Program-made: the position numbers and the translations under genes | Virus record (IMG/VR): IMGVR_UViG_3300024346_000492 | Location: 1-24,458 of that record | Source: a virus | DNA length: 24,458 nucleotides | Direction: 5' to 3' (one strand) | In this document: positions 1,165-23,466 of the stretch, piece after piece | Layout: every line of letters begins with the position of its first letter | How positions within the stretch are numbered: position 1 is the first letter of the stretch | Notes under the pieces: model-generated | Seen by the model: only the letters and a program-made list of their open reading frames with translations | Databases searched by the model: none | What the model was told of the DNA's origin: nothing

Positions 1165-1521
1165 TTACCTTGTCACCGAAGGATTGACTTTTATTTTGCC
1201 TTCAAGCACTCTTTCTATAATAGTGTTGCCTTCTCCATCGACATAACTTATCTCGACATCATAGACATATCTACCACGAGTAGTTAGCATGTCGGTTTGG
1301 AGATTGGTTAAGGAAATGGTAACAATACCATCTGTTGAAGGGTCTGGAATAATAGCAGTAAAGTCAACAGTACTGTCATCAGAACTATTGAAGGTTTTCT
1401 TCATCTTGGCAGATACAGAGAACCCAGTTAGGTCTTTTGTTGATTCGTCAGGGTCTACTAACTCTATTTGCAAAGCAAAGTCTGAACCCTGATCAATTGT
1501 GAAATCTTCGTAAGTTGCCAT
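1165..1521 (-). CDS. Small beta-rich virion protein (118 aa)
   Basis: A short acidic protein beginning MATYEDFTIDQGSDF. It then shows alternating beta strands (FALQIELVD, GFSVSAKMKK, GIVTISLT, YVYDVEISYVDG, RVLEGKIKV), the pattern of a single Ig-like or BppU-N-like sandwich found in phage baseplate and fibre accessory proteins. It has no cysteines, signal peptide or membrane segment. It is the first gene of a late unit: the TATAAATA at 1562-1569 is 41 bases upstream and the 292-aa fibre-like gene follows after 7 bases. The candidate Shine-Dalgarno AAGG (1533-1536) lies in the 3' arm of a long hairpin, and an AGGA sits only 2 bases before the ATG. Translation may therefore depend on which promoter made the transcript. 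The fold assignment is inference from strand pattern and context. Confidence 0.7.
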   Translation of the reverse strand: MATYEDFTIDQGSDFALQIELVDPDESTKDLTGFSVSAKMKKTFNSSDDSTVDFTAIIPDPSTDGIVTISLTNLQTDMLTTRGRYVYDVEISYVDGEGNTIIERVLEGKIKVNPSVTR

Positions 1522-1529
1522 ATTCCTAA

Positions 1530-1583
1530 AAACCTTAAACTGTTTATAAAACGTCTAACTCTATTTATAACAGTTTAAGGTTT
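1530..1583 (-). promoter_or_regulatory. Long hairpin around a late promoter: predicted terminator and/or translation block
   Basis: Bases 1530-1542 and 1571-1583 are a perfect 13-bp inverted repeat. Allowing one bulged base (1545), pairing extends to 20 bp, leaving a 13-base loop (1551-1563). On the minus strand the 3' arm runs into five Ts, then AGGAAT and the ATG of the 118-aa gene. The arm also contains AAGG (1533-1536), a likely ribosome-binding site. The late promoter -10 is in the 5' arm and loop, so late transcripts would start near base 1555 and lack the 5' arm. Only read-through RNA from the upstream cassette would fold. Phage T4 gene e is controlled by this arrangement. The structure is seen in the sequence; the function is inferred. 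Confidence 0.65.
1562..1569 (-). promoter_or_regulatory. T4-type late promoter (TATAAATA) for the 118-aa and 292-aa genes
   Basis: Exact TATAAATA on the minus strand, 41 bases before the ATG at 1521. The flanking bases (CTGTTATAAATAG) match those of the late promoter at 18413-18420. It is embedded in the hairpin at 1530-1583. Confidence 0.75.
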
Positions 1584-1599
1584 GAAGATTGAGATATAT

Positions 1600-2307
1600 T
1601 TACTCAGCAGATTCGATATCTGCAAGAACCATTGCACGGAAACCTTCGGATGCTTCTGAGTGATCAAAAACATAAGAAACTGTGCAACGCCAGTCATCTG
1701 TAGATGCGGTGTGATACATTACTTTGTCTGACTCACCGTAGTGACCGAAGTATGCAGCCTTACAAGTCCATTCACCTGGCTTGTCTTGACAACGAATTAC
1801 TTCTTTAGTCTCTGGGTGAATGTACTCAAAGTAACCTGAACCGTCTTCTGAGTAAGAGAAGATTAGGTTGTAACCTGGAGCATTTGCATTATTGTGCCAT
1901 GAGATGAATCCACCTGGTGGATATACTGCTGCAAGTGCATTGTGTTTAACCGACAAAAAGTTCATCATCTTGTCATTTAAGTCACGTAAGTGATGAGTCA
2001 TGTCACGTTTGAATACTGGATGTGCGTCCTTATCAAACATCATGTGTGATTTATCGGAAAGTTTAAAGTTGTAACCAACTAGTTCGTCTGGGAAACCTTC
2101 ATGACCTTGACCTTGAGCAACAATCTCATCCATATGTTTAGGTCCAACAAAGTATGGACGCTGTCGAATGTGTTGTGCAGCAGTGAGGTGACAGTTTTCT
2201 TCGAAACCTTTCATGGTATGCAACTTAGCGTATTCGTTTAGAATCTCTAGCAACTCAGGATTGTTTACCTGTACGTGCCTTAGATATGAGTCGTTTACCT
2301 GTGTCAT
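1600..2307 (-). CDS. 2-oxoglutarate/Fe(II) oxygenase-like protein with an altered metal site (235 aa)
   Basis: The C-terminal half looks like the double-stranded beta-helix core of 2OG-Fe(II) oxygenases. It has YPPGGFISWHNN with His138, then strands around NLIFSYSEDG and GYFEYIHPET, a KPGEW turn, then a second His199 (MYHTAS) and Arg207 in DWRCTVSYVF, matching the distal His and the 2-oxoglutarate-binding Arg. The usual proximal metal motif is HxD or HxE. Here it is H138-N-N140, so the carboxylate ligand is missing, and the protein may be an altered enzyme or a non-catalytic relative. Residues 1-100 are a helical N-terminal part with many His residues. The start codon overlaps the stop of the glycosyltransferase gene (ATGA), so the two are translationally coupled. 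Substrate unknown; possible targets are the neighbouring virion proteins or a glycan. Confidence 0.6.
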   Translation of the reverse strand: MTQVNDSYLRHVQVNNPELLEILNEYAKLHTMKGFEENCHLTAAQHIRQRPYFVGPKHMDEIVAQGQGHEGFPDELVGYNFKLSDKSHMMFDKDAHPVFKRDMTHHLRDLNDKMMNFLSVKHNALAAVYPPGGFISWHNNANAPGYNLIFSYSEDGSGYFEYIHPETKEVIRCQDKPGEWTCKAAYFGHYGESDKVMYHTASTDDWRCTVSYVFDHSEASEGFRAMVLADIESAE

Positions 2308-3041
2308 ACGATTGGAGTATCCTTGTTTAACCCTGCCGAGAAGTGACGCAAAATCACTGGACCCGTTTCAGGTTGTGTGATTGCCCAGTTCAGGGCATTG
2401 TAATAATTCCACCTCAAGTCGTCATCAAAGATACCAACTTTGAGGTCCTTATATTTTTCTTCTTTCTCGACTAACCACCAGAGAGAAAATTGATCCCAAG
2501 ACTTGAGACTATCTACATACCCTTCTGGCCACCAAGAATCATTCATCTGTCTGAATGTTAGGTCCCACCAGTCATCCATGAATTCACGAACAATTGGTTT
2601 AGACATATCATATAAACAAACACCACCGCATAGTGTGAACTTCGCACTACCTTCTGGAGTATCAAAGTCTCTTTCTGCGTAAATATAATCACGATCATCT
2701 GTCAATGCAGAGAAAACCACGTCATGGTCTTTCATCTCATCCCAAACCTTGATAATATCTTCGTGCTCACATTCCATGTCAGCATCAATATACATCGTCA
2801 AGTCATATGGAGATTTTGCCATCCCCCATAACTTGGCACGATAATGGTCGTCACAAAACAAAATATCGTCCGCAACATCACGACCACGATCATCAAGAAA
2901 TCTTTCTTCTGTTACCAAACAAATCTTACATTCTTCTTCAGGTTCATAATAGTCCCGAATAGACTCCGCAAGATTGATTGCGTACAAATAAAAGTTGCGT
3001 TTCTTAGACGCAACAATTATAAATCCTTTAGTCTTTTCCAT
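2304..3041 (-). CDS. GT-A fold glycosyltransferase, GT8-like (245 aa)
   Basis: Transfers a sugar from a nucleotide-sugar donor. The N-terminus has a Rossmann-type first strand (GFIIVASKKRNFYLYA). At residues 84-90 the sequence YIDADME carries the DxD motif (Asp86, Asp88) that binds metal and nucleotide sugar. Later come SWDQFSLWW (Asp183), a typical acceptor-side segment, and near the C-terminus RHFSAGLNK (His233, Gly237, Lys240), resembling the HxxGxxK motif of GT8-like enzymes. It has no signal peptide or membrane segment and should be cytoplasmic. It overlaps the upstream coiled-coil gene by 14 bases and the downstream oxygenase-like gene by 4, forming a three-gene cassette. Donor and acceptor are unknown. 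DNA, lipopolysaccharide precursors and the adjacent Tyr/Thr/Asn-rich fibre are all possible. Confidence 0.75.
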   Translation of the reverse strand: MEKTKGFIIVASKKRNFYLYAINLAESIRDYYEPEEECKICLVTEERFLDDRGRDVADDILFCDDHYRAKLWGMAKSPYDLTMYIDADMECEHEDIIKVWDEMKDHDVVFSALTDDRDYIYAERDFDTPEGSAKFTLCGGVCLYDMSKPIVREFMDDWWDLTFRQMNDSWWPEGYVDSLKSWDQFSLWWLVEKEEKYKDLKVGIFDDDLRWNYYNALNWAITQPETGPVILRHFSAGLNKDTPIV

Positions 3042-3489
3042 TAGTCTCGGCCTCTAGTTGGTCTTGTAAAATCATAATTGAGTACATATCGACTTCAATC
3101 TTAGACTTTGCACGACGCAATTTTGCCTTTAACTTACGGTTCTTAGAGTTCTTAATCTCTTCGACTTCGAACGCTTCCATCTTATAATTGAAGAGTTTTT
3201 CTAGTTTACGTGCTTTGTTATGTTCCTCATCACGTACCTTCTCTTCTTCTGCTTCTGCAGCCTTTCGTTCAACACGGTCAACAGTTTCCTTGTCAATCGC
3301 ATCTTCACCTAGGGCATCAACAACTTCGTTAAACAGTTCGTTCTCACTACCACCCTTATCGTGACGGTGTAAAAACATTTGTTGGCGTGTTACTCTACCA
3401 ACATCATCTTCAAGTTCTAGGATACAGTTTAGTTCTTTCTTTTCTTCTGTTTCCCAGAATGCATTATCCATCCATTGCTTACGACTCAT
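3028..3489 (-). CDS. Charged coiled-coil protein of unknown function (153 aa)
   Basis: I chose the ATG at 3489 (MSRKQWMDNAFWETEEKK) because a good GGAG lies 6 bases upstream. The frame is open further to a TTG at 3510, but that would put the GGAG inside the gene. Residues from about 75 to the end are dominated by Glu, Lys and Arg with heptad-like spacing (KAAEAEEEKVRDEEHNKAR, then KLKAKLRRAKSKIEVDM), predicting long helices or a coiled coil. The N-terminal 70 residues are less biased. No catalytic motif, Cys pair or membrane segment is apparent. It is the first gene of the cassette with the glycosyltransferase and oxygenase-like genes, downstream of a sigma70-like promoter. It could be a scaffold or partner for these enzymes, but that is a guess from position. 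I do not recognise the family. Confidence 0.65.
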   Translation of the reverse strand: MSRKQWMDNAFWETEEKKELNCILELEDDVGRVTRQQMFLHRHDKGGSENELFNEVVDALGEDAIDKETVDRVERKAAEAEEEKVRDEEHNKARKLEKLFNYKMEAFEVEEIKNSKNRKLKAKLRRAKSKIEVDMYSIMILQDQLEAETNGKD

Positions 3490-3495
3490 TAATAT

Positions 3496-3499
3496 CTCC
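3496..3499 (-). promoter_or_regulatory. Ribosome binding site (GGAG) that sets the start of the coiled-coil gene
   Basis: GGAG on the minus strand, 6 bases before the ATG at 3489. It favours this start over the upstream TTG at 3510. Confidence 0.7.
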
Positions 3500-3543
3500 A
3501 GAGAGTTCAATTCAAATTATAATGTATATAGTGTTGAGATAAA

Positions 3544-3576: not shown

Positions 3577-3605
3577 ATTATACCATACTTAGGGGGATTA
3601 TGCAA
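3577..3605 (-). promoter_or_regulatory. Sigma70-like promoter with extended -10 for the enzyme cassette
   Basis: On the minus strand TGGTATAAT (3577-3585) gives a perfect -10 hexamer with the TGn extension. Exactly 17 bases upstream is TTGCAT (3600-3605), a half-match to the -35. It overlaps the stop codon of giant gene A. No TATAAATA late motif is present in this gap. It would drive the coiled-coil, glycosyltransferase and oxygenase-like genes with host-type RNA polymerase, separately from the late genes on either side. Confidence 0.5.
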
Positions 3606-6600
3606 CCCTACAGTATAAAGTATAAGTTTCTGGTGTATGTACTAGAGTGTCACTAATCGTTGCACCAACATAGTTACCTAGGAAGGATCGTGAGTAGTTG
3701 CCACCGAAGTTGCGTGAGTAATCACCTGTAAATTCACGTGTGTAGTTACCAGTGAAGTCACCTACGTATGTAGATACACGATCACGTGAGTAAGTACCAG
3801 AGTATGCAGAACTACGGATTCTTGAGTAAGCAGAAACCCTTACACGAGAGTAGTTGCCTACGAAGTCACGAGAGTAGTTACCTACGAAGTCACCGACGAA
3901 GTCACGAGCATATGTACCAGTGTATTCACCAGCAAACGTTCTTGCATAGTCACCTACGAAGTCACCAGCAAAGTCACGAGTGTACTGACCGGAGAAATCA
4001 CGTGAGTAGTTACCTGTGAATGTGTTAGAGTAAGTACCAGTGTACTCACCAACGAATTCACGAGCGTAGTTTCCTACGTAGTTTCCACCAAAGTCTCTTG
4101 AGTAAGTTCCGGAGTAAGCGCCAGCGTACTCACCAACGAATCCACGTGAGTAAGTTCCAGCATATTCACCAGTGAAAGTACGTGCATAGTTTCCTACGTA
4201 GTTTCCACCAAACTGTCGAGTGTAATTACCAACATAGTTACCAGTAAAGTCACCAACATAATCCCCAACAAAGTTACCCGCATAGTTACGAGAGTATTGT
4301 CCGGAGAATGTGCGTGAGTAGTTACCAGTAAAGTCACCAGCAAAGTTAGTTACACGATCACGAGTGTATGCGGATGAACGGTTACGTGTGTAAACAGAAA
4401 CACGACTTCTTACATATGCAGAGTAACGAGTACGAGCTGATGTACGAGTATACTCACCAGTAAAGTCACCAGCAAAGTCACCAGCGTATCCACGAGTATA
4501 GTTACCAACAAAGTCTCCGGCATATCCACGTGAGTAGTTACCCACGAAGTTTCCAGCAAAGTCAGTTACTCTATCTCTTGTGAAGTCACCAATGTAGTTA
4601 GTCACACGTGTACGTGCGTAAGAAGAACCACGGTTACGAGTCGAAGTACGTGTTGAAGTACGAGTAAAGTCACCAACATAGTTAGTGATACGAGTACGAG
4701 CATATGCAGAGTAACGAACGCGAGTAGAAGTTCGAGTAGAAGTTCTTGCGTAGTTACCTACGAAGTTACCAGCAAAGTTAGTTACACGGTTACGAGTAAA
4801 GTCACCAACATAGTTAGTGATACGAGTACGTGCGTAAGCAGAGTAACGAGTACGTGTTGAAGTACGAGTACTAGTTCTTGCGTAGTTACCTACATAGTCA
4901 CCAGCGTATGCTAGAGTCCGACCATAGTCACCTACGTAATCACCAGCATAGTAACCAGTACGAGTGTAGTAACCAGTCTCAGTACGAGTACGAGTACTAG
5001 TTCTTGCGTAGTTACCAGTATAGTGACCAGTACGTGTACGACCATAGTTACCAGTGTAAGCACCAGTACGTGTACGAGAGTAATCTCCAGCATATGAGAA
5101 CGCACGGTTACGTGAGTAATCGCCTACGAAATCACCTGCGAAGTTAGTCACACGGTTACGTGAGTAATCTCCAACATATGATGCTCCACGTGTACGAGAG
5201 TAGTTTCCTACGAAATCACCGGCATAAGATGCAGCACGGTTACGTGAGTAATCTCCAACATAAGATGCATTACGTGTACGAGAGTAATCACCTACGAAAT
5301 CACCAGTGTAGTTGGTTGCACGAGTTCTTGCATATGCAGATGAACGGTTACGTGTAAAGTTACGTGCGTATGCACCTGAGTAGTAGCTTGTCCAAGTATA
5401 GTTGGTTGCACGAGTTGTCGTATACGCCATGGCAGTAACAAAGTTACCAGCAAAGTTGCCAGTATAGTTAGATGATGCAGTGGTTCTTGTACGAGATATC
5501 TTGTAGTAAACCCAGTTTCCAGATGTGTTATTATAAGCACCCCTATAGTAAGTATTACCATCAATACCAGTCAAAGTCGTAATATTGGGATTAAACCATA
5601 TTTTCACAACAACCCCATTCCAGAAAAGTTTTGCCTCAGATGGTTCACCACCAGCTGGTGGTCCCACTCTCCAATATGTATGGGGCCAGTTAACGAACAT
5701 TGATGCTGAGGTGTATGATGCGCCACCACCAACACTTGTTCTAGTAGAAGTTCGAGTTGATGTAAGATTTCTAGTAAAGTCACCCACGAAGTTTCCGGTA
5801 TAGTATGATAACCTAGAATAATCACCACCGTATGCACGTGAGTAATTACCAGTGTAACTACGTGAATAGTTTCCTACGAAGTCGCCGGTATAATTGGTTG
5901 CACGAGTACGTCCATAGTTACCCACATAAGATGCCGCACGAGTACGACCATAGTTACCAGTGTATGTTGCATTACGTGTACGAGTAGATGTACGAGCATA
6001 GTTACCAACATAAGATGCGGCACGAGTACGTCCATAGTTTCCAACAAAATCACCAGCATAGTTAGTTACACGAGTACGACCATAGTTACCAGTATAGTTA
6101 CCAGTACGTGTACGTCCATAGTTACCGACATATGAGAATGCACGGTTGCGAGAGTAATCTCCAACATATGAGAACGCACGGTTACGTGAGTAATCACCTA
6201 CGAAATCACCGGCATAGTACAATGTACGAGTATATGCTAGTGTACGAGTTGATGTACGTGTTGATGTGCGAGTATAGTTAAATGCACTGTTACGAGTACG
6301 AGTTGAAGTCCTTGCATAATCTCCAACATAGTTACCGGCGAAGTCACCAGCGTATCCACGAGCATAGTTACCTACGAAGTCACCTGTGAACGTTGTTGCA
6401 TAGTTACCAACAAAATCACCAGCAAAGTTAGTTACACGGTCACGCGTATATTCACCTACGAAGTCACCAGCGAAGTCACCAGCGTATCCACGAGCATAGT
6501 TACCAACAAAGTCGCCAGTAAATGTGGTTGCATAGTTACCTACGTAATCACCGGCATAGTCACCAGCAAAGTTACGTGCATAGTTACCTACGAAATCACC

Positions 6601-8325
6601 AACGAAGTCACGAGCATAGTTGCCTACGAAGTTACCGGCAAAGTTAGTGACACGGTCACGTGTATATGCAGAGTAGCGAGTACGAGTTGACGTACGAGCA
6701 TATGCTGAATAACGTGTACGAGTAGATGTACGAGTAGAAACGCGAGCGTAGTTACCAACATAATCACCAGCATAACCACGAGAGTAGTTGCCTGCGAAGC
6801 CACGTGAGTAGTCACCCACGAATCCACGAGCATAGTTACCTACGAAGTTACCAGCGAAGTTAGTGACTCGATTGCGTGTGTAAGTAGAAACACGTGCACG
6901 AGAGTAAACGCCTGCAAAGTTAGTTACACGGTCACGTGTATAATTGGTAATACGAGTACGAGTGTAATCAGCAGAGTATGCTGAAGTACGAGTACGAGTA
7001 TAAGTCCCTGCGTAAGCAGATACACGGTTGCGCGAATAAGTACCAGCATATGCAGATACACGGTTACGAGAATAAGTTCCAGCGTAAGTTCCAGTGTATG
7101 TTGATACGCGTGTACGAGTGTAGTCTGCTGTGTAAGCCGAACTGCGTGTACGTGAGTAAGTACCTGAGTAAGTTGAAACACGACCACGAGTATACGAAGA
7201 TGCACGAGTACGTGAGAATGTTCCGGTAAATGGTGTGATGCGGTTTCGAACATATGTAGAAACACGTGAACGGTTGTAAGTACCGGCAAAGTATCCAGTA
7301 AATGCAGTTAGTCTATTACGTGTATATGATGAAACGCGAGTTCTCGCATAGTTACCTACATAGTCACGAGAATAGTTTCCTACGAAGTCACGTGAGTATG
7401 CACCAGTGTACTCACCAACAAATGTACGTGAGAAAGTATCTACACTGTTACGTGTGTAAGTAGAAACACGGTCACGTGAGTATGCAGAAACCCTAGTACG
7501 AGTGTAAGCAGAGTTACGTGTACGAGAATAAGATGCGTCAACAATAGTACGTTGAGTGTTTGCGGCAGTACCACGAGGTACCCAAGTACCTGCTGAAGTT
7601 GGAGCACCTTGTGCAGATGAACGAAGTTGGTAAGAACCAATCGCACCTGCGGTTGATCGAAGTGATTTAGCACGTTGACCAAGTGTGTACTTGATCTCTG
7701 CGTCTGACATTTCTTTAAGACCGTTAAATGATGAATTTCCATCATAATCGGTTGCAACTGGACGAACTACTGAAACACCAGAAGGTGATGCAGTCTTCTT
7801 CCAAATATGATAATCTATTGTTGTACCATCACCTAATGTATTAGAGAAAACACTATCGACATGTTTAGTCCATTCACTGCCTGGCGAGGTAACTTGTAGT
7901 ACAAACGAACCTTGAAGTCCATTAGACTCAATGTTTTTTAATGCACGGTTTGTGAGGTTATCCAAATCTGCGTCTACCATTTCGTAGAAGCCAGGATTTG
8001 CGTTATCTGCATAATAACCGACAGGTCGAGCAAAATCAGAACCAGACTCACTTGCGGAACCACTAACCTGTCTCAAGGTTGTAGTCACACTCGTGTTTGT
8101 GATAGCAGACATCGGGTGTGTACCCGCTGGTTCGTTGTAGAAGGTATCTACAAATGAACCGATGTTTGTACCGTTGGTTAAACTGATGTCACCAATATCA
8201 CCAGCAGTGGCCTCTGCTAGTGCTTCTCCTACTTTAACAGCAAGGTAGTTCTCTTCTGCTGGAGTAAGTTCCTGTAGGTCACCATTAGTATTCTTAATTT
8301 TTAGTGGTATACTAGATGCTGACAC
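3598..8325 (-). CDS. Giant tetrapeptide-repeat fibre protein A (1575 aa)
   Basis: Predicted virion fibre or adhesin. Residues 1-264 are a non-repetitive N-terminal part, probably the attachment region. From about 265 to 866 and 946 to 1550 the sequence is an almost unbroken four-residue pattern with an aromatic (or Arg/Ser) at position 1 and Gly or Arg at position 3, for example YVGNYARGYAGDF or YTRTRVSAYSRDR. Between them is a non-repetitive Trp-rich island (about 867-945) that resembles an island in giant protein B. The last 25 residues (ending YTLYCRVA) are non-repetitive. The repeats are rich in Tyr, Phe, Arg, Gly, Asn, Asp and Thr and nearly free of Lys, Cys, Met and Pro. The start is GTG with GAGAG 8 bases upstream; no ATG lies between the late promoter and this codon in frame. 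I do not know a named family for this repeat. Confidence 0.8.
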   Translation of the reverse strand: MSASSIPLKIKNTNGDLQELTPAEENYLAVKVGEALAEATAGDIGDISLTNGTNIGSFVDTFYNEPAGTHPMSAITNTSVTTTLRQVSGSASESGSDFARPVGYYADNANPGFYEMVDADLDNLTNRALKNIESNGLQGSFVLQVTSPGSEWTKHVDSVFSNTLGDGTTIDYHIWKKTASPSGVSVVRPVATDYDGNSSFNGLKEMSDAEIKYTLGQRAKSLRSTAGAIGSYQLRSSAQGAPTSAGTWVPRGTAANTQRTIVDASYSRTRNSAYTRTRVSAYSRDRVSTYTRNSVDTFSRTFVGEYTGAYSRDFVGNYSRDYVGNYARTRVSSYTRNRLTAFTGYFAGTYNRSRVSTYVRNRITPFTGTFSRTRASSYTRGRVSTYSGTYSRTRSSAYTADYTRTRVSTYTGTYAGTYSRNRVSAYAGTYSRNRVSAYAGTYTRTRTSAYSADYTRTRITNYTRDRVTNFAGVYSRARVSTYTRNRVTNFAGNFVGNYARGFVGDYSRGFAGNYSRGYAGDYVGNYARVSTRTSTRTRYSAYARTSTRTRYSAYTRDRVTNFAGNFVGNYARDFVGDFVGNYARNFAGDYAGDYVGNYATTFTGDFVGNYARGYAGDFAGDFVGEYTRDRVTNFAGDFVGNYATTFTGDFVGNYARGYAGDFAGNYVGDYARTSTRTRNSAFNYTRTSTRTSTRTLAYTRTLYYAGDFVGDYSRNRAFSYVGDYSRNRAFSYVGNYGRTRTGNYTGNYGRTRVTNYAGDFVGNYGRTRAASYVGNYARTSTRTRNATYTGNYGRTRAASYVGNYGRTRATNYTGDFVGNYSRSYTGNYSRAYGGDYSRLSYYTGNFVGDFTRNLTSTRTSTRTSVGGGASYTSASMFVNWPHTYWRVGPPAGGEPSEAKLFWNGVVVKIWFNPNITTLTGIDGNTYYRGAYNNTSGNWVYYKISRTRTTASSNYTGNFAGNFVTAMAYTTTRATNYTWTSYYSGAYARNFTRNRSSAYARTRATNYTGDFVGDYSRTRNASYVGDYSRNRAASYAGDFVGNYSRTRGASYVGDYSRNRVTNFAGDFVGDYSRNRAFSYAGDYSRTRTGAYTGNYGRTRTGHYTGNYARTSTRTRTETGYYTRTGYYAGDYVGDYGRTLAYAGDYVGNYARTSTRTSTRTRYSAYARTRITNYVGDFTRNRVTNFAGNFVGNYARTSTRTSTRVRYSAYARTRITNYVGDFTRTSTRTSTRNRGSSYARTRVTNYIGDFTRDRVTDFAGNFVGNYSRGYAGDFVGNYTRGYAGDFAGDFTGEYTRTSARTRYSAYVRSRVSVYTRNRSSAYTRDRVTNFAGDFTGNYSRTFSGQYSRNYAGNFVGDYVGDFTGNYVGNYTRQFGGNYVGNYARTFTGEYAGTYSRGFVGEYAGAYSGTYSRDFGGNYVGNYAREFVGEYTGTYSNTFTGNYSRDFSGQYTRDFAGDFVGDYARTFAGEYTGTYARDFVGDFVGNYSRDFVGNYSRVRVSAYSRIRSSAYSGTYSRDRVSTYVGDFTGNYTREFTGDYSRNFGGNYSRSFLGNYVGATISDTLVHTPETYTLYCRVA
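3675..5489 (-). repeat. Tetrapeptide (12-nt) repeat array, C-terminal half of giant protein A
   Basis: About 605 residues of the pattern [YF]-x-[GR]-[NDTA] repeat at 12-nt spacing. At DNA level many units share near-identical words such as GGTAACTAC and GTAGGTGAC (as read on the minus strand). Longer blocks are duplicated: gttagtgatacgagtacg occurs at 4681 and again at 4813, exactly 132 bases (11 tetrads) apart. Confidence 0.85.
5490..5730 (-). other. Non-repetitive island domain splitting the array of giant protein A
   Basis: Roughly residues 867-945. Features are YWRVGPP, LFWNGVVVKIWF, then GNTYYRGAYNNTSGNW and YYKIS. The tetrad pattern stops abruptly on both sides. An island at 20400-20693 in giant protein B shows the same order of landmarks (YW, FNG or WNG, NG/GN-TY, YY), so I read it as a shared domain, perhaps a carbohydrate- or surface-binding knob. 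Confidence 0.65.
5731..7533 (-). repeat. Tetrapeptide (12-nt) repeat array, N-terminal half of giant protein A
   Basis: About 602 residues of the aromatic-x-Gly/Arg-x pattern. A higher-order duplication is visible: the block starting agcgtatccacgagcatag at 6349 recurs at 6481, again 132 bases (44 residues, 11 tetrads) away. The blocks encode ATTFTGDFVGNYARGYAGDF with few changes. Confidence 0.85.
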
Positions 8326-8375
8326 AATATCGTCTCTCTTTAGCTAAAGTTAAATTTAAGGTTTATAACATCATT

Positions 8376-8383
8376 TATTTATA
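8376..8383 (-). promoter_or_regulatory. T4-type late promoter (TATAAATA) for giant gene A
   Basis: Exact TATAAATA on the minus strand, 50 bases before the GTG start at 8325 and directly after the terminator at 8386-8424. A 12-bp palindrome (ctttagctaaag, 8338-8349) lies in the leader just upstream of the ribosome binding site. Confidence 0.7.
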
Positions 8384-8385
8384 AT

Positions 8386-8424
8386 AAAAAAAATGTGCAT
8401 AAACAAAGTCTAAGCACATTTTTT
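8386..8424 (-). terminator. Rho-independent terminator after the chaperone gene
   Basis: TGTGC (read as GCACA on the other arm) at 8394-8398 and 8414-8418 is flanked by A-runs and T-runs that extend the stem to 11 bp, with a 15-base loop. On the minus strand it ends in a run of eight Ts. It closes the long unit that ends with the 146-aa gene. The A/T flanks make it potentially bidirectional. The rest of the 176-base gap 8326-8501 holds the late promoter and a 9-bp inverted repeat (8448-8456/8472-8480) of unknown role. Confidence 0.75.
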
Positions 8425-8501
8425 GAGTCATTTTTTAGAATGTGTTTATAGTGTATGCAACATTCACTATTATACACTATTATCTAGAAAATAGCAAGTA
8501 A

Positions 8502-8942
8502 TTATTTTGGTTCTTTTGGCCAATCAACATCCTTTACATTAGATATATTGTCTTGGACAAAAGATAGACTTCTTAGTTCCTCACGATATATTTGCCAGTC
8601 CAACTTATCATCTTCTGATAACGGAGAGTCTGGCATTTGAGTCCAGTCACTACTCTGAAGCAATAGATTACGAATTTCTCTTATCTCTTGAATGAGATCG
8701 TCCCATGACCATTCCCACTGATTGTTCACCCACTTGGAATGTTTGTTGGGAGATACTTCCCTTTCTTTCCACTCGTCGTCCCAATAGTGAGTCATAATGA
8801 AGTCATTTCTATTATCTATAGCAAAATCAATATGAACCACTTCAGAACCGTCTTCACGTAATCCTTCTGGTTCATTATTACCAGATGCTAATTTCAGAAC
8901 TTCTATTTCATTATTTCTAATGAAAGCAATATAATAAATCAT
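8502..8942 (-). CDS. Phage tail assembly chaperone (PF16778-like), 146 aa
   Basis: The C-terminal third carries the signature of this chaperone family: RNLLLQSSDWTQMPDSPL (about 91-108) followed by WQIYREELRSL (116-126) and a terminal DWPKEP. Members usually sit beside a fibre gene and help its protein fold or assemble. The N-terminal half is unrelated to that signature but shares HS-x-W and W-x-WSWD segments with the 159-aa protein at 17905-18384, so the two are paralogues. It starts 11 bases after the 244-aa gene, with GAGAAG before the ATG, and is the last gene before a strong terminator. The next gene is giant fibre A, which I infer to be its client, although the 244-aa protein is an equally close neighbour. 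Confidence 0.75.
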   Translation of the reverse strand: MIYYIAFIRNNEIEVLKLASGNNEPEGLREDGSEVVHIDFAIDNRNDFIMTHYWDDEWKEREVSPNKHSKWVNNQWEWSWDDLIQEIREIRNLLLQSSDWTQMPDSPLSEDDKLDWQIYREELRSLSFVQDNISNVKDVDWPKEPK

Positions 8943-8953
8943 TTATCTTCTCT

Positions 8954-9688
8954 TTATGTTAATTCTGCTGAAAGTATCATTCCGGTGATACTGGTTGCCC
9001 ATCTTTCATCACTTGTTGCGGAAGTCTGTCCTTCAGGACCAGTATTATTACCAACACTATAATAACCAATAGCATAAGGTCCACCAGCAAACCAAATACC
9101 AACTATGTCAGTATCACCTTCGAAGGTGCCGGCTAAACCACTCGTCCAGTTAGATATTTCCCAGTAGTCTGAAGATGAACCTAAACTAACTCCACCATTT
9201 GTAGTAGACCATGCGTCCACACTTCTTGGTTCATGATATGTATTTATTTTAAAATGGTGTCCTAGTTGTATGGCACGACTATCAAACTGTTTGGTATTAT
9301 CTGCATTGAAAACCACTAGACCATAATCATCTGAGGATGAAACTTTACTCGAATGTTTTACCGTAAAATAATCCAGTGTAGCTTCAGTAGCAGGACCAAA
9401 AGTAGTAGTCCACTGTCCTCCCGAAGAAGTATTGGTCATCTGACGTTTATTAAACTTTTTAGATATTTGGTTATAAAAAATAACTTGATCATTGAAGGCA
9501 TTTATCTGACCATCAGGTATCTTAATAAAAACGAAATCCGCATCACTAGTAGAAAATGGACCATTTGTCGTTACACTAGGGCCAGTTCCAGTTCCTATTT
9601 CACTAACAACGTAACTGTTCATCTTTCTACGAGAATCAAACATTAATCCGTTGTTAGCATTATAAACTGTAAGACCATAATCTGACAT
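8954..9688 (-). CDS. YG-module tail or fibre protein with two internal repeats (244 aa)
   Basis: Begins MSDYGLTVYNANNGLMFDSR, and a second copy of the module occurs at about 121-138 (DYGLVVFNADN, then FDSR). The stretch between and after is beta-rich, with a glycine-rich C-terminal part (GIWFAGGPYAIGYYSVG). The whole protein aligns in order with the first ~275 residues of giant protein B: D/Y-x-FIK-x-P, then LDYFTVKHSS against MDYFVVRKAS, then the second YG-x-FDSR module, then FKINTY against FYIESY. It is therefore a free-standing version of B's N-terminal domain. TAATG overlap with the 97-aa gene upstream. Such YG proteins are typical of phage tail-tip or fibre clusters. Exact function unknown. 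Confidence 0.7.
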   Translation of the reverse strand: MSDYGLTVYNANNGLMFDSRRKMNSYVVSEIGTGTGPSVTTNGPFSTSDADFVFIKIPDGQINAFNDQVIFYNQISKKFNKRQMTNTSSGGQWTTTFGPATEATLDYFTVKHSSKVSSSDDYGLVVFNADNTKQFDSRAIQLGHHFKINTYHEPRSVDAWSTTNGGVSLGSSSDYWEISNWTSGLAGTFEGDTDIVGIWFAGGPYAIGYYSVGNNTGPEGQTSATSDERWATSITGMILSAELT

Positions 9689-9981
9689 TACTGAAACCTA
9701 AAAAGTTTTGCGGAAAATACCGCATTTCCATTATTCGTATTGGTGATTGTCAAAGTGTCATTAGAAGAATTTCGAGTGATCTCTATATTTTCACTCGAAG
9801 TTGTTAAGTCTATTCCAATCAATGCTGAATTTCCAGCACCTTCTGTTTGGATATTAATAGAAGAATTTCCTCCAATAGATTGACTAGTAAGTTCAAAATC
9901 ATACTCTTCATTGAATATGACATCGGAGTTAGTTATAACTCCTCCGTTGATACCGTCACTTATGTATAGTCCGTGACTCAT
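9688..9981 (-). CDS. Small YG-family tail protein (97 aa)
   Basis: Begins MSHGLYISDGINGG and ends GNAVFSAKLFRFQ. The end resembles the end of the N-terminal domain of giant protein B (HNAIFAAKLGVG), and the start resembles the MSxYG starts of the 104-aa and 244-aa proteins, with His-Gly in place of Tyr-Gly. It is a compact beta-rich protein, rich in Asn, Ser and Thr, with no cysteines. The ATG overlaps the stop of the 449-aa fibre gene (ATGA) and its own stop overlaps the next ATG (TAATG), so the three are translationally coupled. It probably caps or follows the fibre in the tail tip. Function unproven. Confidence 0.65.
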   Translation of the reverse strand: MSHGLYISDGINGGVITNSDVIFNEEYDFELTSQSIGGNSSINIQTEGAGNSALIGIDLTTSSENIEITRNSSNDTLTITNTNNGNAVFSAKLFRFQ

Positions 9982-11327
9982 AGTCCTGCCAAGTTCCCTA
10001 GCTGTACACGTAGTTGTCCAGAACTATCAAATATCTTAGTGGCGTCATTTGTTAATTCCATTCGAGCACCAGTTTGACCTGTACCTATATCTAGTTGTCC
10101 TGTAACTGTCGCATTAGAAAGTAACACGTCATTACCAGAAACCGTGAATGGTTGGATTTCATTATCAGAAGCATTTACAATCTTGAAGGTGTCTGCGGTC
10201 AATGCAAACTCTGCGGTTGCACCGTCATTACCGAACTTGATACCAGCAATGTGTGGGTTTGCTTCAGTTCCAGCAACTAGGTCTATACCCCAAGATGCAT
10301 TTGTTGTTATTAATCCTTCTACTCGTGAGACTTCTGTCTGTAGGGATTCTGTAGCTAGTGCAACGAAAGTGGTGGGATTACCATCTGAGTCTACAGTATC
10401 TATTTTACCTTCAAGAATAGTAATATCTCCCTGTACAGTCGAGATATTTCCTTCATTGACTTCCACACGAGAAGTTAGAGCTGATCTTGCGTTACCTTCT
10501 GCGGTGATTAGGGCACCTGTATCAGAATCATTCGCCCTAACCAAGGTGTCTAGGTTTACTATTTTACCAGCTTCCAATACCAACCTATCACTGTCCGCAT
10601 TAAGTCTAAGAGTCAACTCATCCAGTGCACCACCAATGGCTTCAGTAACTTGTTCTGGTGTGAGAGTTATTCCATCACTAATAACTGCCTTTAAGTCTAC
10701 GTCTAGTTTAGTTACATCGGAAACCACAGCGGACAACCCACTAGTGTTTGCATTCACAGTAGAGGTCAATGCACTTACGGCACTAGTCTGTAAATCGATT
10801 CGGTCATTGGTCGCAGAATCTAAAAGAAGTAGATCCGCACTCACACTATCGATTCTTCCCCCAAAAACGCTAATACTACTATCTGTCGCATCAATGCGTG
10901 AGATTAAAGTAGTGTTCGCATTCGCAATAGCATCTGCAAGTAAGTCCGAATCAATACCACCTAGAACAAGACCTTCAAGTTCTGCTTGAGTGGCTTGTAT
11001 CTGTGAGGCAAGAACGGTGATACCACTATCGGTTTCAGTTACACTTGCATGTAATGTCAACAAGGAAGCCGCGTTAGCAGCAACAGCATTTTCAAGATCG
11101 GTTAAATCTACGTTAACGTCTATGGTAAATTGTTGTAGATATTCTTGGTTGATGACTGTAAGAAAATAATCCGAATCAAGAATATTGTTGACGATATTCG
11201 TAACCGAATTTGAATCTACACTATTAAAGACCCCAGTCTTAACAAGAGCAAAGTTTTCGTTTAATTTATCGAATGCCGCATTGATATTATCTGCGAGATT
11301 GACTGTTTGTATAGTACCTGTGCTCAT
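9978..11327 (-). CDS. Tail fibre with long helical shaft and DUF1983/gpJ-like C-terminus (449 aa)
   Basis: Predicted fibre or tail-tip protein. Residues 1-30 (NLADNINAAFDKLNENFALV) resemble a short adaptor helix. Residues 30-340 are irregular Ala/Ser/Asp/Ile-rich helical repeats with many DSD, DSN and DSS turns, expected to form a trimeric coiled shaft. The C-terminus begins at Trp346 with WGIDLVAGTEANPHIAGIKF, then EFALTADTFKIVNA, then PFTVSGNDVLLSNATVTG and a final GQLRVQLG, matching the DUF1983-type domain at the end of lambda gpJ-like host-specificity proteins. The truncated fibre at the right end of the window finishes with the same domain. Starts by ATGA overlap with the 76-aa gene. Low in Cys, no membrane segment. 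Confidence 0.75.
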   Translation of the reverse strand: MSTGTIQTVNLADNINAAFDKLNENFALVKTGVFNSVDSNSVTNIVNNILDSDYFLTVINQEYLQQFTIDVNVDLTDLENAVAANAASLLTLHASVTETDSGITVLASQIQATQAELEGLVLGGIDSDLLADAIANANTTLISRIDATDSSISVFGGRIDSVSADLLLLDSATNDRIDLQTSAVSALTSTVNANTSGLSAVVSDVTKLDVDLKAVISDGITLTPEQVTEAIGGALDELTLRLNADSDRLVLEAGKIVNLDTLVRANDSDTGALITAEGNARSALTSRVEVNEGNISTVQGDITILEGKIDTVDSDGNPTTFVALATESLQTEVSRVEGLITTNASWGIDLVAGTEANPHIAGIKFGNDGATAEFALTADTFKIVNASDNEIQPFTVSGNDVLLSNATVTGQLDIGTGQTGARMELTNDATKIFDSSGQLRVQLGNLAGL

Positions 11328-17904: not shown

Positions 17905-18384
17905 CTATTTCGGTGCAGTAGGCCAGACGACCTCTGACACTGATGTTACATTTCCAATGGTTGACGGCAAGTCTCTTAATGCTTGTCGATAGTCTCTCCA
18001 TTCTTGAAGTTTTGCTTCGGTCAAAGGAGCATCCAATGACTGAGTCCAATCAGAAGAAAACAAAAATCTGTTTCTTTCCACTACGATGTCTTGTAACAAT
18101 GACTCTGCGTCCCAAGACCATCCATCTGTAGAACTCCATACAGAGTGTCTGTTAGGTGGTAATCCTATAAAATCAAAAGACTCTGTTTCACTGTTGTACC
18201 AGTGATAGTCCATGAAGTATCTCGTATCATGACACCCTTCTGGAATATTATCTTCAAAGATATGGATAATACGCATAGTAGCATCTTCAGAGATGCCTGC
18301 CTTATCGATGTTGTGATGTGGTATTGATATTCTAGATATTCTACCAGTCTCAATTTTTACGTATACTACGAATTTCAAATTCAT
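17905..18384 (-). CDS. Phage tail assembly chaperone (PF16778-like), 159 aa
   Basis: Same family as the 146-aa protein at 8502-8942. The signature is RFLFSSDWTQSLDAPL (about 106-121), EWRDYRQALRDLP (128-140) and a terminal VVWPTAPK. The middle shares P-N-R/K-HS-x-W and a W-x-WSWD segment with its paralogue, which goes beyond the family signature and argues for duplication inside this phage lineage. It is the first gene after the late promoter at 18413-18420 and the gene immediately after giant protein B, its likely client. An AAGG lies about 9 bases before the ATG. It is separated from gp8 by 16 bases. It should act in the cytoplasm during fibre assembly and may not remain in the virion. Confidence 0.75.
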   Translation of the reverse strand: MNLKFVVYVKIETGRISRISIPHHNIDKAGISEDATMRIIHIFEDNIPEGCHDTRYFMDYHWYNSETESFDFIGLPPNRHSVWSSTDGWSWDAESLLQDIVVERNRFLFSSDWTQSLDAPLTEAKLQEWRDYRQALRDLPSTIGNVTSVSEVVWPTAPK

Positions 18385-18445: not shown

Positions 18446-21400
18446 TTAATTTAGGTTGTTATTAGAGCCGCCAGTGTTTGTGTAATATACTGGAGGAGTG
18501 TAGGTTGTCGTGTAGGTTGGCGTGTAGGTTGTAGTTGGTGGTACATAGTCCGTATTGGATATCCTACTCACTACATAGTATGACGACACTATCCACGCAT
18601 TACCATTCCATACTCTTAGACTGTAAGTATAACTTGAACCAGCCGGAGGAACTTCATTCACAGTCTTCGTCGTTCTCTGATTAGATGACAGGTTGAAGTC
18701 CGATACTATTATAGAACTTCCTCGGTAGATTCTTGCTGGTACTAATGAAGTTCCTTCTGTATAGAAATCAAAGGTGACATCATGTGTTGTTGATGTATGA
18801 TGAATCACCTGTGGAGATGTAGATACGAACAACCCATGATCATCATCATAAAGAGTGAATTCTTTTGAGTCTAGTACTGCAAGGGTTCCTCTAGCCGCAC
18901 CTATAGATGTTGCATCAGAACCTCTTCGCAATTCAATAACAAACCGTTCTCCCTGCCAACCTGTCTCCGAGGTATTGGATGGTGTACGAGTCGACTCACT
19001 TGTGTAGTTACCTATGTAATCTCCTACATAATTAGCAGTGAAGTCTCTTGTATAGTCAACACCATCAGTTCTTGTGTAAGAACTCGTTCGTGTTCCAGTA
19101 GAAGTTCGAGTTGATATAATAGTCCTAGTGAAGTCTGCGGTAGGTTCTCTAGTATATACCGGAAACCGTGAGTACGATGACGTTCTAATAAGAGCATTAT
19201 TAGTGCTTGTGCGACTATATTCACCTGTGAAGTTGCCTGCAAAGGTGAGAGGTCTACTGTAAGATAAAGTACTTGCTCTGTCTCTGGTATAGTCTCCAAC
19301 ATAGTTACCAATGAAATCACCGGCAAAGTATCTTGTTCCTGTGTATACACTGGTTCGTGTTATAGCAGAAGTTCGAGTACGAGTAAACGTAGAAGTTGTA
19401 CCTCTAGCGTAGTTACCGACATAATCTAAATTACGTGTACCCGAAAAGTCTCCGATATAGGAAACTCCAGCTGTACGAGTTCGACTATAGTTTCCAACAT
19501 AGTTCCCTGCATATCCACGAGTATAGTCACCAACATAGTTCCCTGTAAAGTCACGAGCATAGTTGCCTAGGTAACTTGCTGTATACGTACTTACTCTGGT
19601 AGATGATCTTGCATAGACGGACGATCTAGTTCGGTTATATTCCCCAACCCTAGTATAGTCTCCTATGTACGATGAGTTACGAGTACGAGTGTACAAATGA
19701 CTAGATACCCTATGTTCTCCGTCAGACATAATATAAAAAGCTGCACCGGCTCCAGCATAGTTACCAACATAGTCCGTTATTCTCGTTCGAGTATAGGGTA
19801 AATTACGTGTAGAGGTTCTAGTATAGTTCTCTGTCCTAACTGCACCCGATACATAGTTACGTGCATAGTTACCTGTAAAAGATGAGTTACGGACACGAGT
19901 GTACAAATGACTAGATACCCTGACTTCTCCATTATTCCCCATATAGAAAGTTGTACCGCCATCACCAGAGTAGTTACCGACATAGTCTGTTAATGTCGTC
20001 CGAGTATAAACTGGAGTTCTTGTGAAGTTTCTACTGTAGTTCTCTGTCCTAACCGTCCCTGCCGCATAATCACGTGTATAGTTGCCAACAAAGTTTGATG
20101 CACTGGTTCGGTTATATGTTAAAGTTCGAGTAAATTCTCTAGTGTAGTATTCGGTTCTAACGGTTCCGTTCACATAGTTACGGCCGTAATTACCTGTATA
20201 ACTTGCATCACGAGATCTAGTATAGTCGAGTGTTCTTGTGAAGTTTCTACTATAGCTCTCTGTCCTAACTGTACCCGATACATAGTTACGTGCATAGTTA
20301 CCTATATAACTACTAGTACGAACCAACGAATAATCTACTGTCCTAGAGTATCCCACTGACCGATTTCGTGTATAGGTTGAGTTTCGAGTATAACTCGTTG
20401 TTGTATTTGATGGGGGGAATATAGAAGAACTTAATGCAATCGAATAGTACTTGTTATCCCCGATAGTGTTCTGTAAGGTACCTTTGTGCCAGTAAGTTCC
20501 GTTTATATTTTGTATGTAACTAACATTAGTAAACTGGGTCGACACCGTTGAAGCGACTAATGCTCCACCATTAAATACCTCGATATCAGTAAGTACGAGT
20601 CCACCAGATGTGGGGTCGAAGTCACCAGCGCCCGATTCTGAGTCCGGAGATTCTACCCAATAATGTTTTGGTGAAGAGACATAACTAAAAGGACTGGTTG
20701 TTCTAGTATATGATAAGGCACGTGAGTAGTTACCAACGAAGGTTCTTGCATAGGAGATTGATCTATTGTAAGAGGTTCCAGTAAAAGATCCAGATGTAGT
20801 TCTAGTAAAGTTTCGAGCATATGGAGTGTTTGCAGTGTAACTACGAGCGTAGTTTCTAGCATAAGATCCAACACGAGTATAGTTACCTGTGTAACTTGCA
20901 ACTCTAGTTCTAGTAAAGTTTCGAGCGTATGTTGTCGTATCGGTGTAACTACGAGTAAAGTCTCCAGCATAAGATCCGACACGAGTGTAATCACCTACAT
21001 AACTTGACGATCTGGTTCTAGTGAAGTCTCCGGCGTATGTTGTGGTGTCGGTGAAACTACGAGAGAAGTTCCTAGCATAAGATTGGACACGTGTGTAGTT
21101 CCCAGAGAAGTTACCGACATAGTTACCGACATAGTCACGAGTATAGTTACCTGTGTAACTTGCAACTCTAGTTCTAGTAAAGTTTCGACTAAATGTCGTG
21201 GCGGTATCTGTGAAACTTCGAACAAAATCTCCAGTATAAGATCCTACTCGGAAATAGTTCCCAGAGAAGTTGCCGACATAGTCACCAACAAAGTCACGAG
21301 TATAGTTACCTGTAAAGGCAACGGTGTTAGTTCGTTGATAATTTAAAGTTCGAACGTAGTTCCCTGCGAAGTTGCGAGAGTACTCTCCAGCAAATGATAA

Positions 21401-23152: not shown

Positions 23153-23466
23153 TATCCAACCCTCAATGCTATTATGGTGCCATTAGTGTTAGGCAATCCC
23201 TGATATCCATTAGTTACTGTGAACCCAGTAGATGTTTTATTGCTAACGTAGAACCCTCGAGCAGTCTCGAAGGTTATCAATATTTTTGAAGTGTCGTTTG
23301 CGTCCGGACAAGGAATGAATTCACTCGCATTCCTAGCTAAGTTTAATGTTTCATAAACTTGTATATTGGATGTTCTTATAGAGTCCGAGAAGACTGTCGA
23401 TGACGTAATCGAGTTACCATTGCCGTCACTGTCCGGACTAATAATTTCCATTCCATAATTAGACAT
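23152..23466 (-). CDS. Small YG-family tail protein (104 aa)
   Basis: Begins MSNYGMEIISPDSDGNG, the same MSxYG start as the 244-aa protein and giant protein B. The remainder is beta-rich (SNIQVYETLN, KILITFETARGFYVSN, FTVTNGYQG) and ends in GTIIALRVG, similar in placement to the AKL ends of its relatives. It has a single Cys (about residue 52). Both ends overlap by one base with the neighbours (TAATG): the DUF1983-like fibre upstream and giant gene B downstream. It holds the same position as the 97-aa gene does after the other fibre (9688-9981), supporting a duplicated gene order. Function unknown; probably a tail-tip or fibre-base component. Confidence 0.65.
   Translation of the reverse strand: MSNYGMEIISPDSDGNGNSITSSTVFSDSIRTSNIQVYETLNLARNASEFIPCPDANDTSKILITFETARGFYVSNKTSTGFTVTNGYQGLPNTNGTIIALRVG

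What the first reader, a model, noticed from the sequence alone, without database searches (positions are those of the whole stretch)
8502..8942. Two paralogous PF16778-type chaperones, each beside a giant repeat gene
One follows giant B directly and one precedes giant A. Phage tail-assembly chaperones are often specific to the neighbouring fibre. The N-terminal halves differ more than the C-terminal signature, as expected if the N-terminal half recognises the client.
Basis: inference. Interest (0 to 1): 0.5.

Follow-up and report, generated by a model that had tools for sequence, protein, structure and literature searches.

The report
Fibre chaperones travel with swapped tips
Both small genes look like ordinary phage tail-fibre chaperones, but the one beside giant gene A appears to serve the fibre-tip gene on its other side, with which it is swapped between marine viruses as a set, independently of the giant.

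Summary
8502-8942(-) and 17905-18384(-) are paralogous PF16778 proteins (32% identical); one follows giant B and one precedes giant A.

Each chaperone (APC) ends a fibre > small YG > large YG > APC cassette ("YG" = proteins starting MSYGL-like), and the window holds two. Giant B is the large YG protein of cassette 1 with about 1,000 residues of YxGx repeat in its middle, so APC2 plausibly serves it. Giant A lies outside cassette 2, behind a hairpin with T run (20 of 23 gaps) and a TATAAATA late-promoter motif (23 of 23).

In 61 loci, APC and large YG occur together (33) or are both missing (28, three uninformative); giant A persists without them. Across 23 distinct loci APC divergence follows the large YG protein (partial Mantel r 0.88), not giant A (0.03). 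Phages with near-identical giant A starts carry different YG+APC sets, and one nearly identical set precedes two different giant As. APC1's likely client is the 244-aa YG protein at 8954-9688.

The N-terminal half does track the client more than the C-terminal half. Fibre-plus-chaperone exchange and a variable fibre-binding N-domain are already published, so this is a new member of a known kind.

The parts
8502..8942 (-). APC1: PF16778 tail-fibre chaperone, last gene of cassette 2
   Evidence: PF16778 51.2 bits over cut-off 26.6; starts 11 nt after the YG protein gene; AlphaFold2 pLDDT 92.5, N-terminal beta domain and C-terminal helices
8954..9688 (-). Large YG protein of cassette 2 (244 aa): likely client of APC1, probable fibre-tip protein
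   Evidence: Directly upstream of APC1; a YG-motif gene stands directly upstream of APC in 33 of 33 APC-bearing loci of the giant A set; weak match to phrog_4062, unknown function; mostly beta model, pLDDT 73.5
9688..9981 (-). Small YG-type protein of cassette 2 (97 aa)
   Evidence: MSHGLYISDGIN start; same place as about 100-aa MSYGL proteins in many relatives
9978..11327 (-). Fibre/tail-tip protein of cassette 2 (449 aa)
   Evidence: PF09327 Phage_Tail_Tip 34.2 bits over cut-off 22; phrog_2589 tail
17905..18384 (-). APC2: PF16778 tail-fibre chaperone, last gene of cassette 1
   Evidence: PF16778 63.9 bits over cut-off 26.6; starts 61 nt after giant B
18446..23152 (-). Giant B (1568 aa): large YG protein of cassette 1 with about 1,000 aa of YxGx repeat; likely client of APC2
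   Evidence: Residues 1-362 and 1395-1520 match residues 1-361 and 365-494 of the repeat-free L045 YG protein
23152..23466 (-). Small YG protein of cassette 1 (104 aa)
   Evidence: MSNYGMEI start; same order in L006-L009
23466..24458 (-). Fibre protein of cassette 1, cut by the window end
   Evidence: Ends ..RARVIIGKLS, like the genes at this place in L006 and L007 (..RVRFGKLS..RVILGKLS)
3598..8325 (-). Giant A (1575 aa), outside the cassette; probably its own transcription unit
   Evidence: Present in relatives that lack APC and YG genes beside it
8326..8501 (-). Gap APC1-giant A: hairpin with T run (8388-8424) and TATAAATA (8376-8383)
   Evidence: TATAAATA in 23 of 23 homologous gaps (shuffled gaps: mean 0.93 of 23); hairpin in 20 of 23 by my own scan, 19 with 10 or more pairs (shuffled: mean 0.12). 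The standard terminator scan, limited to loops of 3-8, did not list it
1165..3510 (-). Four genes that follow giant A (160, 245, 235, 118 aa)
   Evidence: All four in 37 of 37 loci with complete giant A and more than 2.7 kb downstream (near-duplicates not removed); APC in 22 of these 37

Best explanation
Both genes encode intermolecular tail-fibre chaperones that act on the fibre or fibre-tip protein encoded directly upstream. Each is the last gene of a fibre > small YG > large YG > APC receptor-binding cassette that recombines between marine T4-like phages. The N-terminal beta domain binds the large YG client and changes with it; the C-terminal helical DWTQ..YRQELRD..WP domain is the common oligomerising part and lies near the downstream edge of the exchanged block. 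APC2 serves giant B because giant B is the large YG protein of cassette 1 with a long YxGx repeat in its middle. APC1 serves the 244-aa YG protein, not giant A, which is a separate unit with its own late promoter. Shown here: families, gene order, co-occurrence, co-divergence, exchange boundaries, the repeat-free giant B homologue. Inferred: binding, chaperone activity, trimerisation, tip location, promoter and terminator use.
For: PF16778 above cut-off. APC and large YG both present in 33 and both absent in 28 of 61 loci, none discordant; 3 of the 28 hold under 1 kb upstream. APC~YGL given giant A N-terminus r 0.88, p 0.0002, 23 loci; APC~giant A given YGL r 0.03, p 0.32; same against giant A's last 60 or 200 aa, 17 loci; same with 3 near-duplicates dropped. 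Natural swaps (protein identity): L063/L089 giant A N-terminus 100% but APC 49%, YGL 29%; L045/L046/L051 giant A 98-99%, APC 31-41%, YGL 29-30%; L055/L051 APC 100%, YGL 99%, giant A 84%. DNA: L051/L047 homology stops about 320 nt into the fibre gene and returns at 96% in the last 27 nt of APC; L063/L089 returns at 97% in the last 152 nt of APC; L055/L051 is 99-100% identical from before the fibre gene through APC and falls to 85, 72 and 67% from the start of giant A. Hairpin and TATAAATA between APC and giant A. L045: giant B homologue without repeat beside an APC nearer APC2 (126 bits) than APC1 (73 bits). Precedent: Pam3 gp25, N-domain binds the fibre, C-domain trimerises (PMC9608196); fibre plus cognate chaperone shared by distantly related phages (PMC10579305).
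Against: No binding or folding data. Genes in one exchanged block co-diverge through linkage alone; the small YG protein (apcN~YGS given YGL r 0.45) and the gene taken as fibre (r 0.74; in some loci the third gene upstream is not the fibre) also correlate. Spearman for APC~YGL is only 0.40 because most pairs sit near 30% identity. The APC C-part keeps a small partial correlation with giant A (r 0.16, p 0.04). Not every pair has its boundary inside APC: against L045 homology returns 2-27 nt after the APC stop, and L051/L045 keep patchy similarity through the fibre gene. Cassette 1 is seen in few lineages, so the APC2-giant B pairing rests on synteny and L045; APCs of L068-L070 also score 121-124 bits to APC2 beside YG proteins only 27-28% like giant B. 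The YGL model was built from APC-bearing loci, so a distant YGL in APC-less loci could be missed. TATAAATA also stands in the giant B-APC2 gap and in 3 of 23 YG-APC gaps, so it does not by itself mark a unit boundary.
Confidence: 0.8

Rival explanations
1. One reading: each APC is dedicated to the adjacent giant, APC1 to giant A and APC2 to giant B.
For: Adjacency of both pairs; the giant B-APC2 pairing is compatible with the data.
Against: No PF16778 in 21 of 42 records, 10 of which hold long repeat-dense giant A homologues; no adjacent APC in L060; no correlation of APC with giant A once YGL is accounted for; probable separate transcription unit.
Confidence: 0.07
2. APC serves the 449-aa fibre or the small YG protein of the cassette rather than the large YG protein, or the whole set as a complex.
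For: They belong to the same exchanged block; Pearson APC~small YG 0.84, APC~third gene upstream C-terminus 0.74.
Against: Large YG is the immediate upstream gene, has the highest correlation (0.92) and keeps r 0.70 after small YG is accounted for.
Confidence: 0.25
3. APC is a transient cap or a permanent tip component as much as a folding chaperone.
For: Transient-cap proposal for Alteromonas phages, and the statement that TfaMu stays on the fibre (PMC10579305 Discussion).
Against: Pam3 gp25 was not detected in virions (PMC9608196 section 3.1). Nothing here separates the two.
Confidence: 0.2

Closest known systems
PF16778 Phage_tail_APC family
   Same: Both proteins match the C-terminal 60-position profile over the cut-off
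   Different: The profile covers only the C-terminal part; the N-terminal halves have no Pfam match
Pam3 gp25 (PMC9608196; taken to be chain a of PDB 7YPX from its length of 162 aa)
   Same: N-terminal beta domain plus C-terminal helices in the model; variable N-part, conserved C-part; fibre chaperone
   Different: Not among the rows of the PDB sequence search with the family profile; fold match weak (Foldseek E 1.5; Z 4.0, 114 aligned, rmsd 6.1)
Mu Tfa (PDB 5YVQ)
   Same: Position after the fibre gene (PMC7289586 passage); N-domain weakly alike (Z 2.5, 55 aligned)
   Different: Caudo_TAP below cut-off for APC2 (14.2 against 22.1), no row for APC1
Alteromonas V22 gp27 / A5 gp9 modules (PMC7289586, PMC10579305)
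   Same: Fibre and cognate chaperone shared together between marine phages
   Different: Those chaperones are listed as DUF4376; no giant repeat gene was seen in the passages read
Phage C48C1 (OQ984149, Kyanoviridae)
   Same: Same gene order: two YG genes, APC, 3347-aa giant A, then the same downstream genes
   Different: A 1568-aa fibre-connector gene stands before the gp8-like gene, without giant B or APC2

Membership tests
PF16778 Phage_tail_APC | Profile score over Pfam's gathering cut-off | tested here: met
   51.2 and 63.9 bits against 26.6
Intermolecular tail-fibre chaperone (Tfa / gp38 / gp25 kind) | Encoded directly downstream of a fibre or tip gene | tested here: met
   YG-motif gene directly upstream in 33 of 33 APC-bearing loci of the giant A set; in six published phages viewed besides C48C1, a fibre, virion structural protein or protein J stands directly upstream (3) or one gene further (3). 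That the YG proteins are fibre-tip proteins is itself inferred
Intermolecular tail-fibre chaperone (Tfa / gp38 / gp25 kind) | Variable N-terminal fibre-binding domain, conserved C-terminal helical domain | tested here: met
   Mean pairwise identity 0.32 N-part, 0.46 C-part over 23 loci; model: strands and a short helix in 4-78, helices in 80-125. Fibre binding itself not tested
Intermolecular tail-fibre chaperone (Tfa / gp38 / gp25 kind) | Same fold as Pam3 gp25 or TfaMu N-domain | tested here: inconclusive
   Z 4.0 and 2.5; no Foldseek match at E <= 0.001
Intermolecular tail-fibre chaperone (Tfa / gp38 / gp25 kind) | Required for folding or trimerisation of the client | not testable with these tools
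   Needs co-expression
Caudo_TAP (lambda Tfa, PF02413) | Profile score over cut-off | tested here: not met
   APC2 14.2 bits against 22.1; no row for APC1
Dedicated chaperone of giant A | Co-occurs and co-diverges with giant A | tested here: not met

The most novel reading that the evidence does not exclude
The tyrosine-rich YxGx repeat is a mobile arm that folds without a dedicated APC. It stands alone as giant A and has been inserted into (or lost from) the chaperone-dependent tip protein of cassette 1 to make giant B, lengthening the fibre while the chaperone still handles only the ends. Giant A is instead served by its constant downstream genes, a weakly glycosyltransferase-2-like protein and an LtfC-like protein among them, so it may be a modified rather than a chaperoned fibre.
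Probability: 0.2. Interest if true: 0.6.

Novelty: new member of a known kind. Interest (0 to 1): 0.38.

Why it matters
It corrects the client assignment and gives a testable rule for these marine T4-like phages: read the APC with the gene before it. The natural swaps give matched pairs (same giant A start, different tip and chaperone; same tip and chaperone, different giant A) for mapping which chaperone residues recognise the tip, and a giant and a repeat-free form of related tip proteins.

Tried and rejected
Giant A as client of APC1: rejected by co-occurrence and co-divergence. APC as a feature of giants in general: rejected, APCs stand near ordinary fibre genes in published phages. Pfam and PHROG searches with the N-terminal parts of giant A and giant B gave no row at the limits used; whole giant A gave only weak rows below cut-off. 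tblastn of the 244-aa YG protein in the phage collection gave no match at E 1e-3, and giant B's N-terminus none. Fold search of the YG model (pLDDT 73.5) gave no PDB match at E <= 0.001 and five viral proteins at that limit, four named uncharacterised and one unnamed. A solved-structure search with the profile of the 235-aa gene after giant A gave two weak unrelated rows, and of the 245-aa gene none at E 0.1. Chimera counts between APC halves were not one-sided: 2 pairs C-alike/N-different and 2 pairs N-alike/C-different by the cut-offs used, so the claim of junctions inside APC rests on the DNA pairs L051/L047, L046/L051 and L063/L089. L041/L062 gave no usable boundary. My first boundary script hid matches with a large offset; one search repeated five pairs without that filter. 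Literature searches; C48C1 together with 'phage', and the string Phage_tail_APC, were not found in the library.

Full report
The window is a whole 24,458-base virus record. Its gene order matches phage C48C1, a Kyanoviridae member, so it is most likely the baseplate and fibre region of a T4-like marine phage. The main genes are on the minus strand.

Observation. The two ORFs, their PF16778 membership and their relation are real. The N-terminal part is less conserved between the two (22 of 83) than the C-terminal part (28 of 62). APC2 follows giant B after 61 nt; APC1 lies 176 nt before giant A but only 11 nt after a 244-aa gene.

Two cassettes. Reading in the direction of transcription, the window holds fibre (23466-24458, cut) > small YG (104 aa) > giant B > APC2, then a gp8-like baseplate gene, a 1665-aa and a 76-aa gene, then fibre (449 aa) > small YG-like (97 aa) > large YG (244 aa) > APC1, then giant A. 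YG names proteins beginning like MSYGL; three large ones tested match phrog_4062 or phrog_3370 weakly, of unknown function. Giant B is the large YG member of cassette 1: its residues 1-362 and 1395-1520 align with residues 1-361 and 365-494 of a 638-aa repeat-free protein in L045, which stands at the APC1 place beside an APC closer to APC2 (126 bits) than to APC1 (73 bits). APCs of L068-L070 also score 121-124 bits to APC2, beside YG proteins 27-28% like giant B's N-terminus.

Who goes with whom. A search with giant A's N-terminal 250 aa gave 59 loci in viral contigs. With the window and C48C1, 61 loci: APC and large YG both present in 33, both absent in 28, no discordant locus; three of the 28 (L094, L099, L100) hold under 1 kb upstream and tell nothing, and two of the 33 (L101, L102) hold only the first 67 and about 20 codons of giant A. 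In the 33, the gene directly upstream of APC bears the YG motif. Of 42 whole records searched (41 of the 59 giant A loci plus L009), 21 had PF16778 and 21 had none, in contigs up to 105.8 kb; none is known to be 90% complete, so absence is not proof. Of the 21 without, 10 (L071, L072, L074, L075, L077, L078, L080, L086, L087, L090) hold long repeat-dense copies, and these include near-duplicates; the other 11 hold short forms of about 420-470 aa with thinner repeats, or cut ends. So the APC-less evidence comes partly from reduced giant A relatives. L060, with a giant A N-terminus 75% identical to the window's, has an 850-aa giant A next to other genes, and a short APC match only upstream of the baseplate gene.

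Co-divergence. In 23 non-redundant loci (31 before removing duplicates) APC distance follows the large YG protein (Mantel r 0.89; 0.88 given giant A) and not giant A given YG (0.03, p 0.32). Giant A C-terminal ends give the same (17 loci), as does dropping three near-duplicates. The N-part follows YG more (0.89) than the C-part (0.57), which keeps a slight link with giant A (0.16, p 0.04). Rank correlation is weaker (0.40 for YG, 0.01 for giant A N-terminus) because distances saturate. Small YG and the third gene upstream also correlate, as expected of a linked block.

Exchange boundaries. Between L051 and L047, DNA identity is 83% up to about 320 nt into the fibre gene, lost, and back at 96% from 27 nt before the APC stop through 2.6 kb; L046/L051 returns at the same place at 98%. 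L063/L089 are 72% alike up to about 75 nt into the fibre gene and return at 97.5% from 152 nt before the APC stop. Against L045, homology returns 2-27 nt after the APC stop; L047/L045 is lost about 350 nt into the fibre gene, while L051/L045 keep patchy similarity through it. The reciprocal case is L055/L051: 99-100% identity in 500-column windows from before the fibre gene through APC, then 85, 72 and 67% from the start of giant A on. L055's YG frame is split into two ORFs.

Transcription. All 23 APC-giant A gaps hold TATAAATA 47-66 nt before giant A (seven hold a second copy), and 20 hold a hairpin followed by T by a scan of my own; shuffled gaps give 0.93 of 23 for the motif, and 0.12 against 19 observed for stems of 10 or more pairs. 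The standard terminator scan, limited to short loops, did not list the window's hairpin. YG-APC gaps, which are short, hold the motif in 3 of 23 and no such hairpin. The loci are related, so these are not independent; in the window as a whole TATAAATA is not significantly enriched (4 found, 10 of 100 shuffles reach that), one copy being before APC2. TATAAATA is the T4 late promoter, and a very similar motif is reported in cyanophages (PMC2984593, passages seen).

Mechanism. The APC1 model (pLDDT 92.5) has an N-terminal beta domain and C-terminal helices, the layout described for Pam3 gp25, where the N-domain binds the fibre and the C-domain trimerises (PMC9608196: abstract and sections 3.1, 3.3, 3.4, 4 read). 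Structural matches are weak; the best is the C-terminal domain of 2KZ6 (Z 7.0), which also matches by sequence. Sharing of fibre plus cognate chaperone between distantly related phages is published (PMC10579305: abstract, passages, Discussion), as is the position directly downstream of the fibre (PMC7289586, passages). So the thing is ordinary in kind; what is new to me is the client assignment, the two cassettes, and a giant, repeat-bearing form of a client whose repeat-free form also exists. I did not find these described in the searches listed, but most subscription papers are not held.

Giant A's own company. In 37 of 37 loci with complete giant A and over 2.7 kb downstream, the same four genes follow, while APC is present in 22 of 37. 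They are better candidates for helpers of giant A than APC1; their function is untested.

Noticed in passing
1165-3510: Four genes follow giant A in 37 of 37 testable loci: 160 aa, 245 aa (glycosyltransferase-2-like, 16.1 bits against cut-off 23.3), 235 aa with invariant WHNNANA and YH..R residues and no Pfam row, 118 aa LtfC-like (24.6 against 27). They might modify or assemble giant A.
   Followed up: partly
3598-8325 and 18446-23152: Both giants carry a threonine/tyrosine/arginine-rich repeat with aromatic residues at period 4 (autocorrelation 0.54 and 0.35 at lag 4), with a non-repeat island in the middle.
   Followed up: partly
L071, L072, L074-L080, L086, L087, L090: Two giant A copies in tandem, without adjacent APC.
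   Followed up: no
L068, L069, L070 second gene upstream of APC: Short YxGx repeat stretches (tetrad density 4-6%) inside cassette proteins other than the giants.
   Followed up: no
24001-24458: 129-nt (43-aa) tandem repeat in the cut fibre gene of cassette 1.
   Followed up: no
L109, L110 (ACG-2014h, S-RSM4): Genes annotated as 2OG-Fe(II) oxygenases stand next to the APC and fibre genes in published cyanophages.
   Followed up: no
L104 15141-16714: Two further small APC-like genes (73 and 79 aa), each directly after a gene of about 350 aa, in the same record as L009.
   Followed up: no
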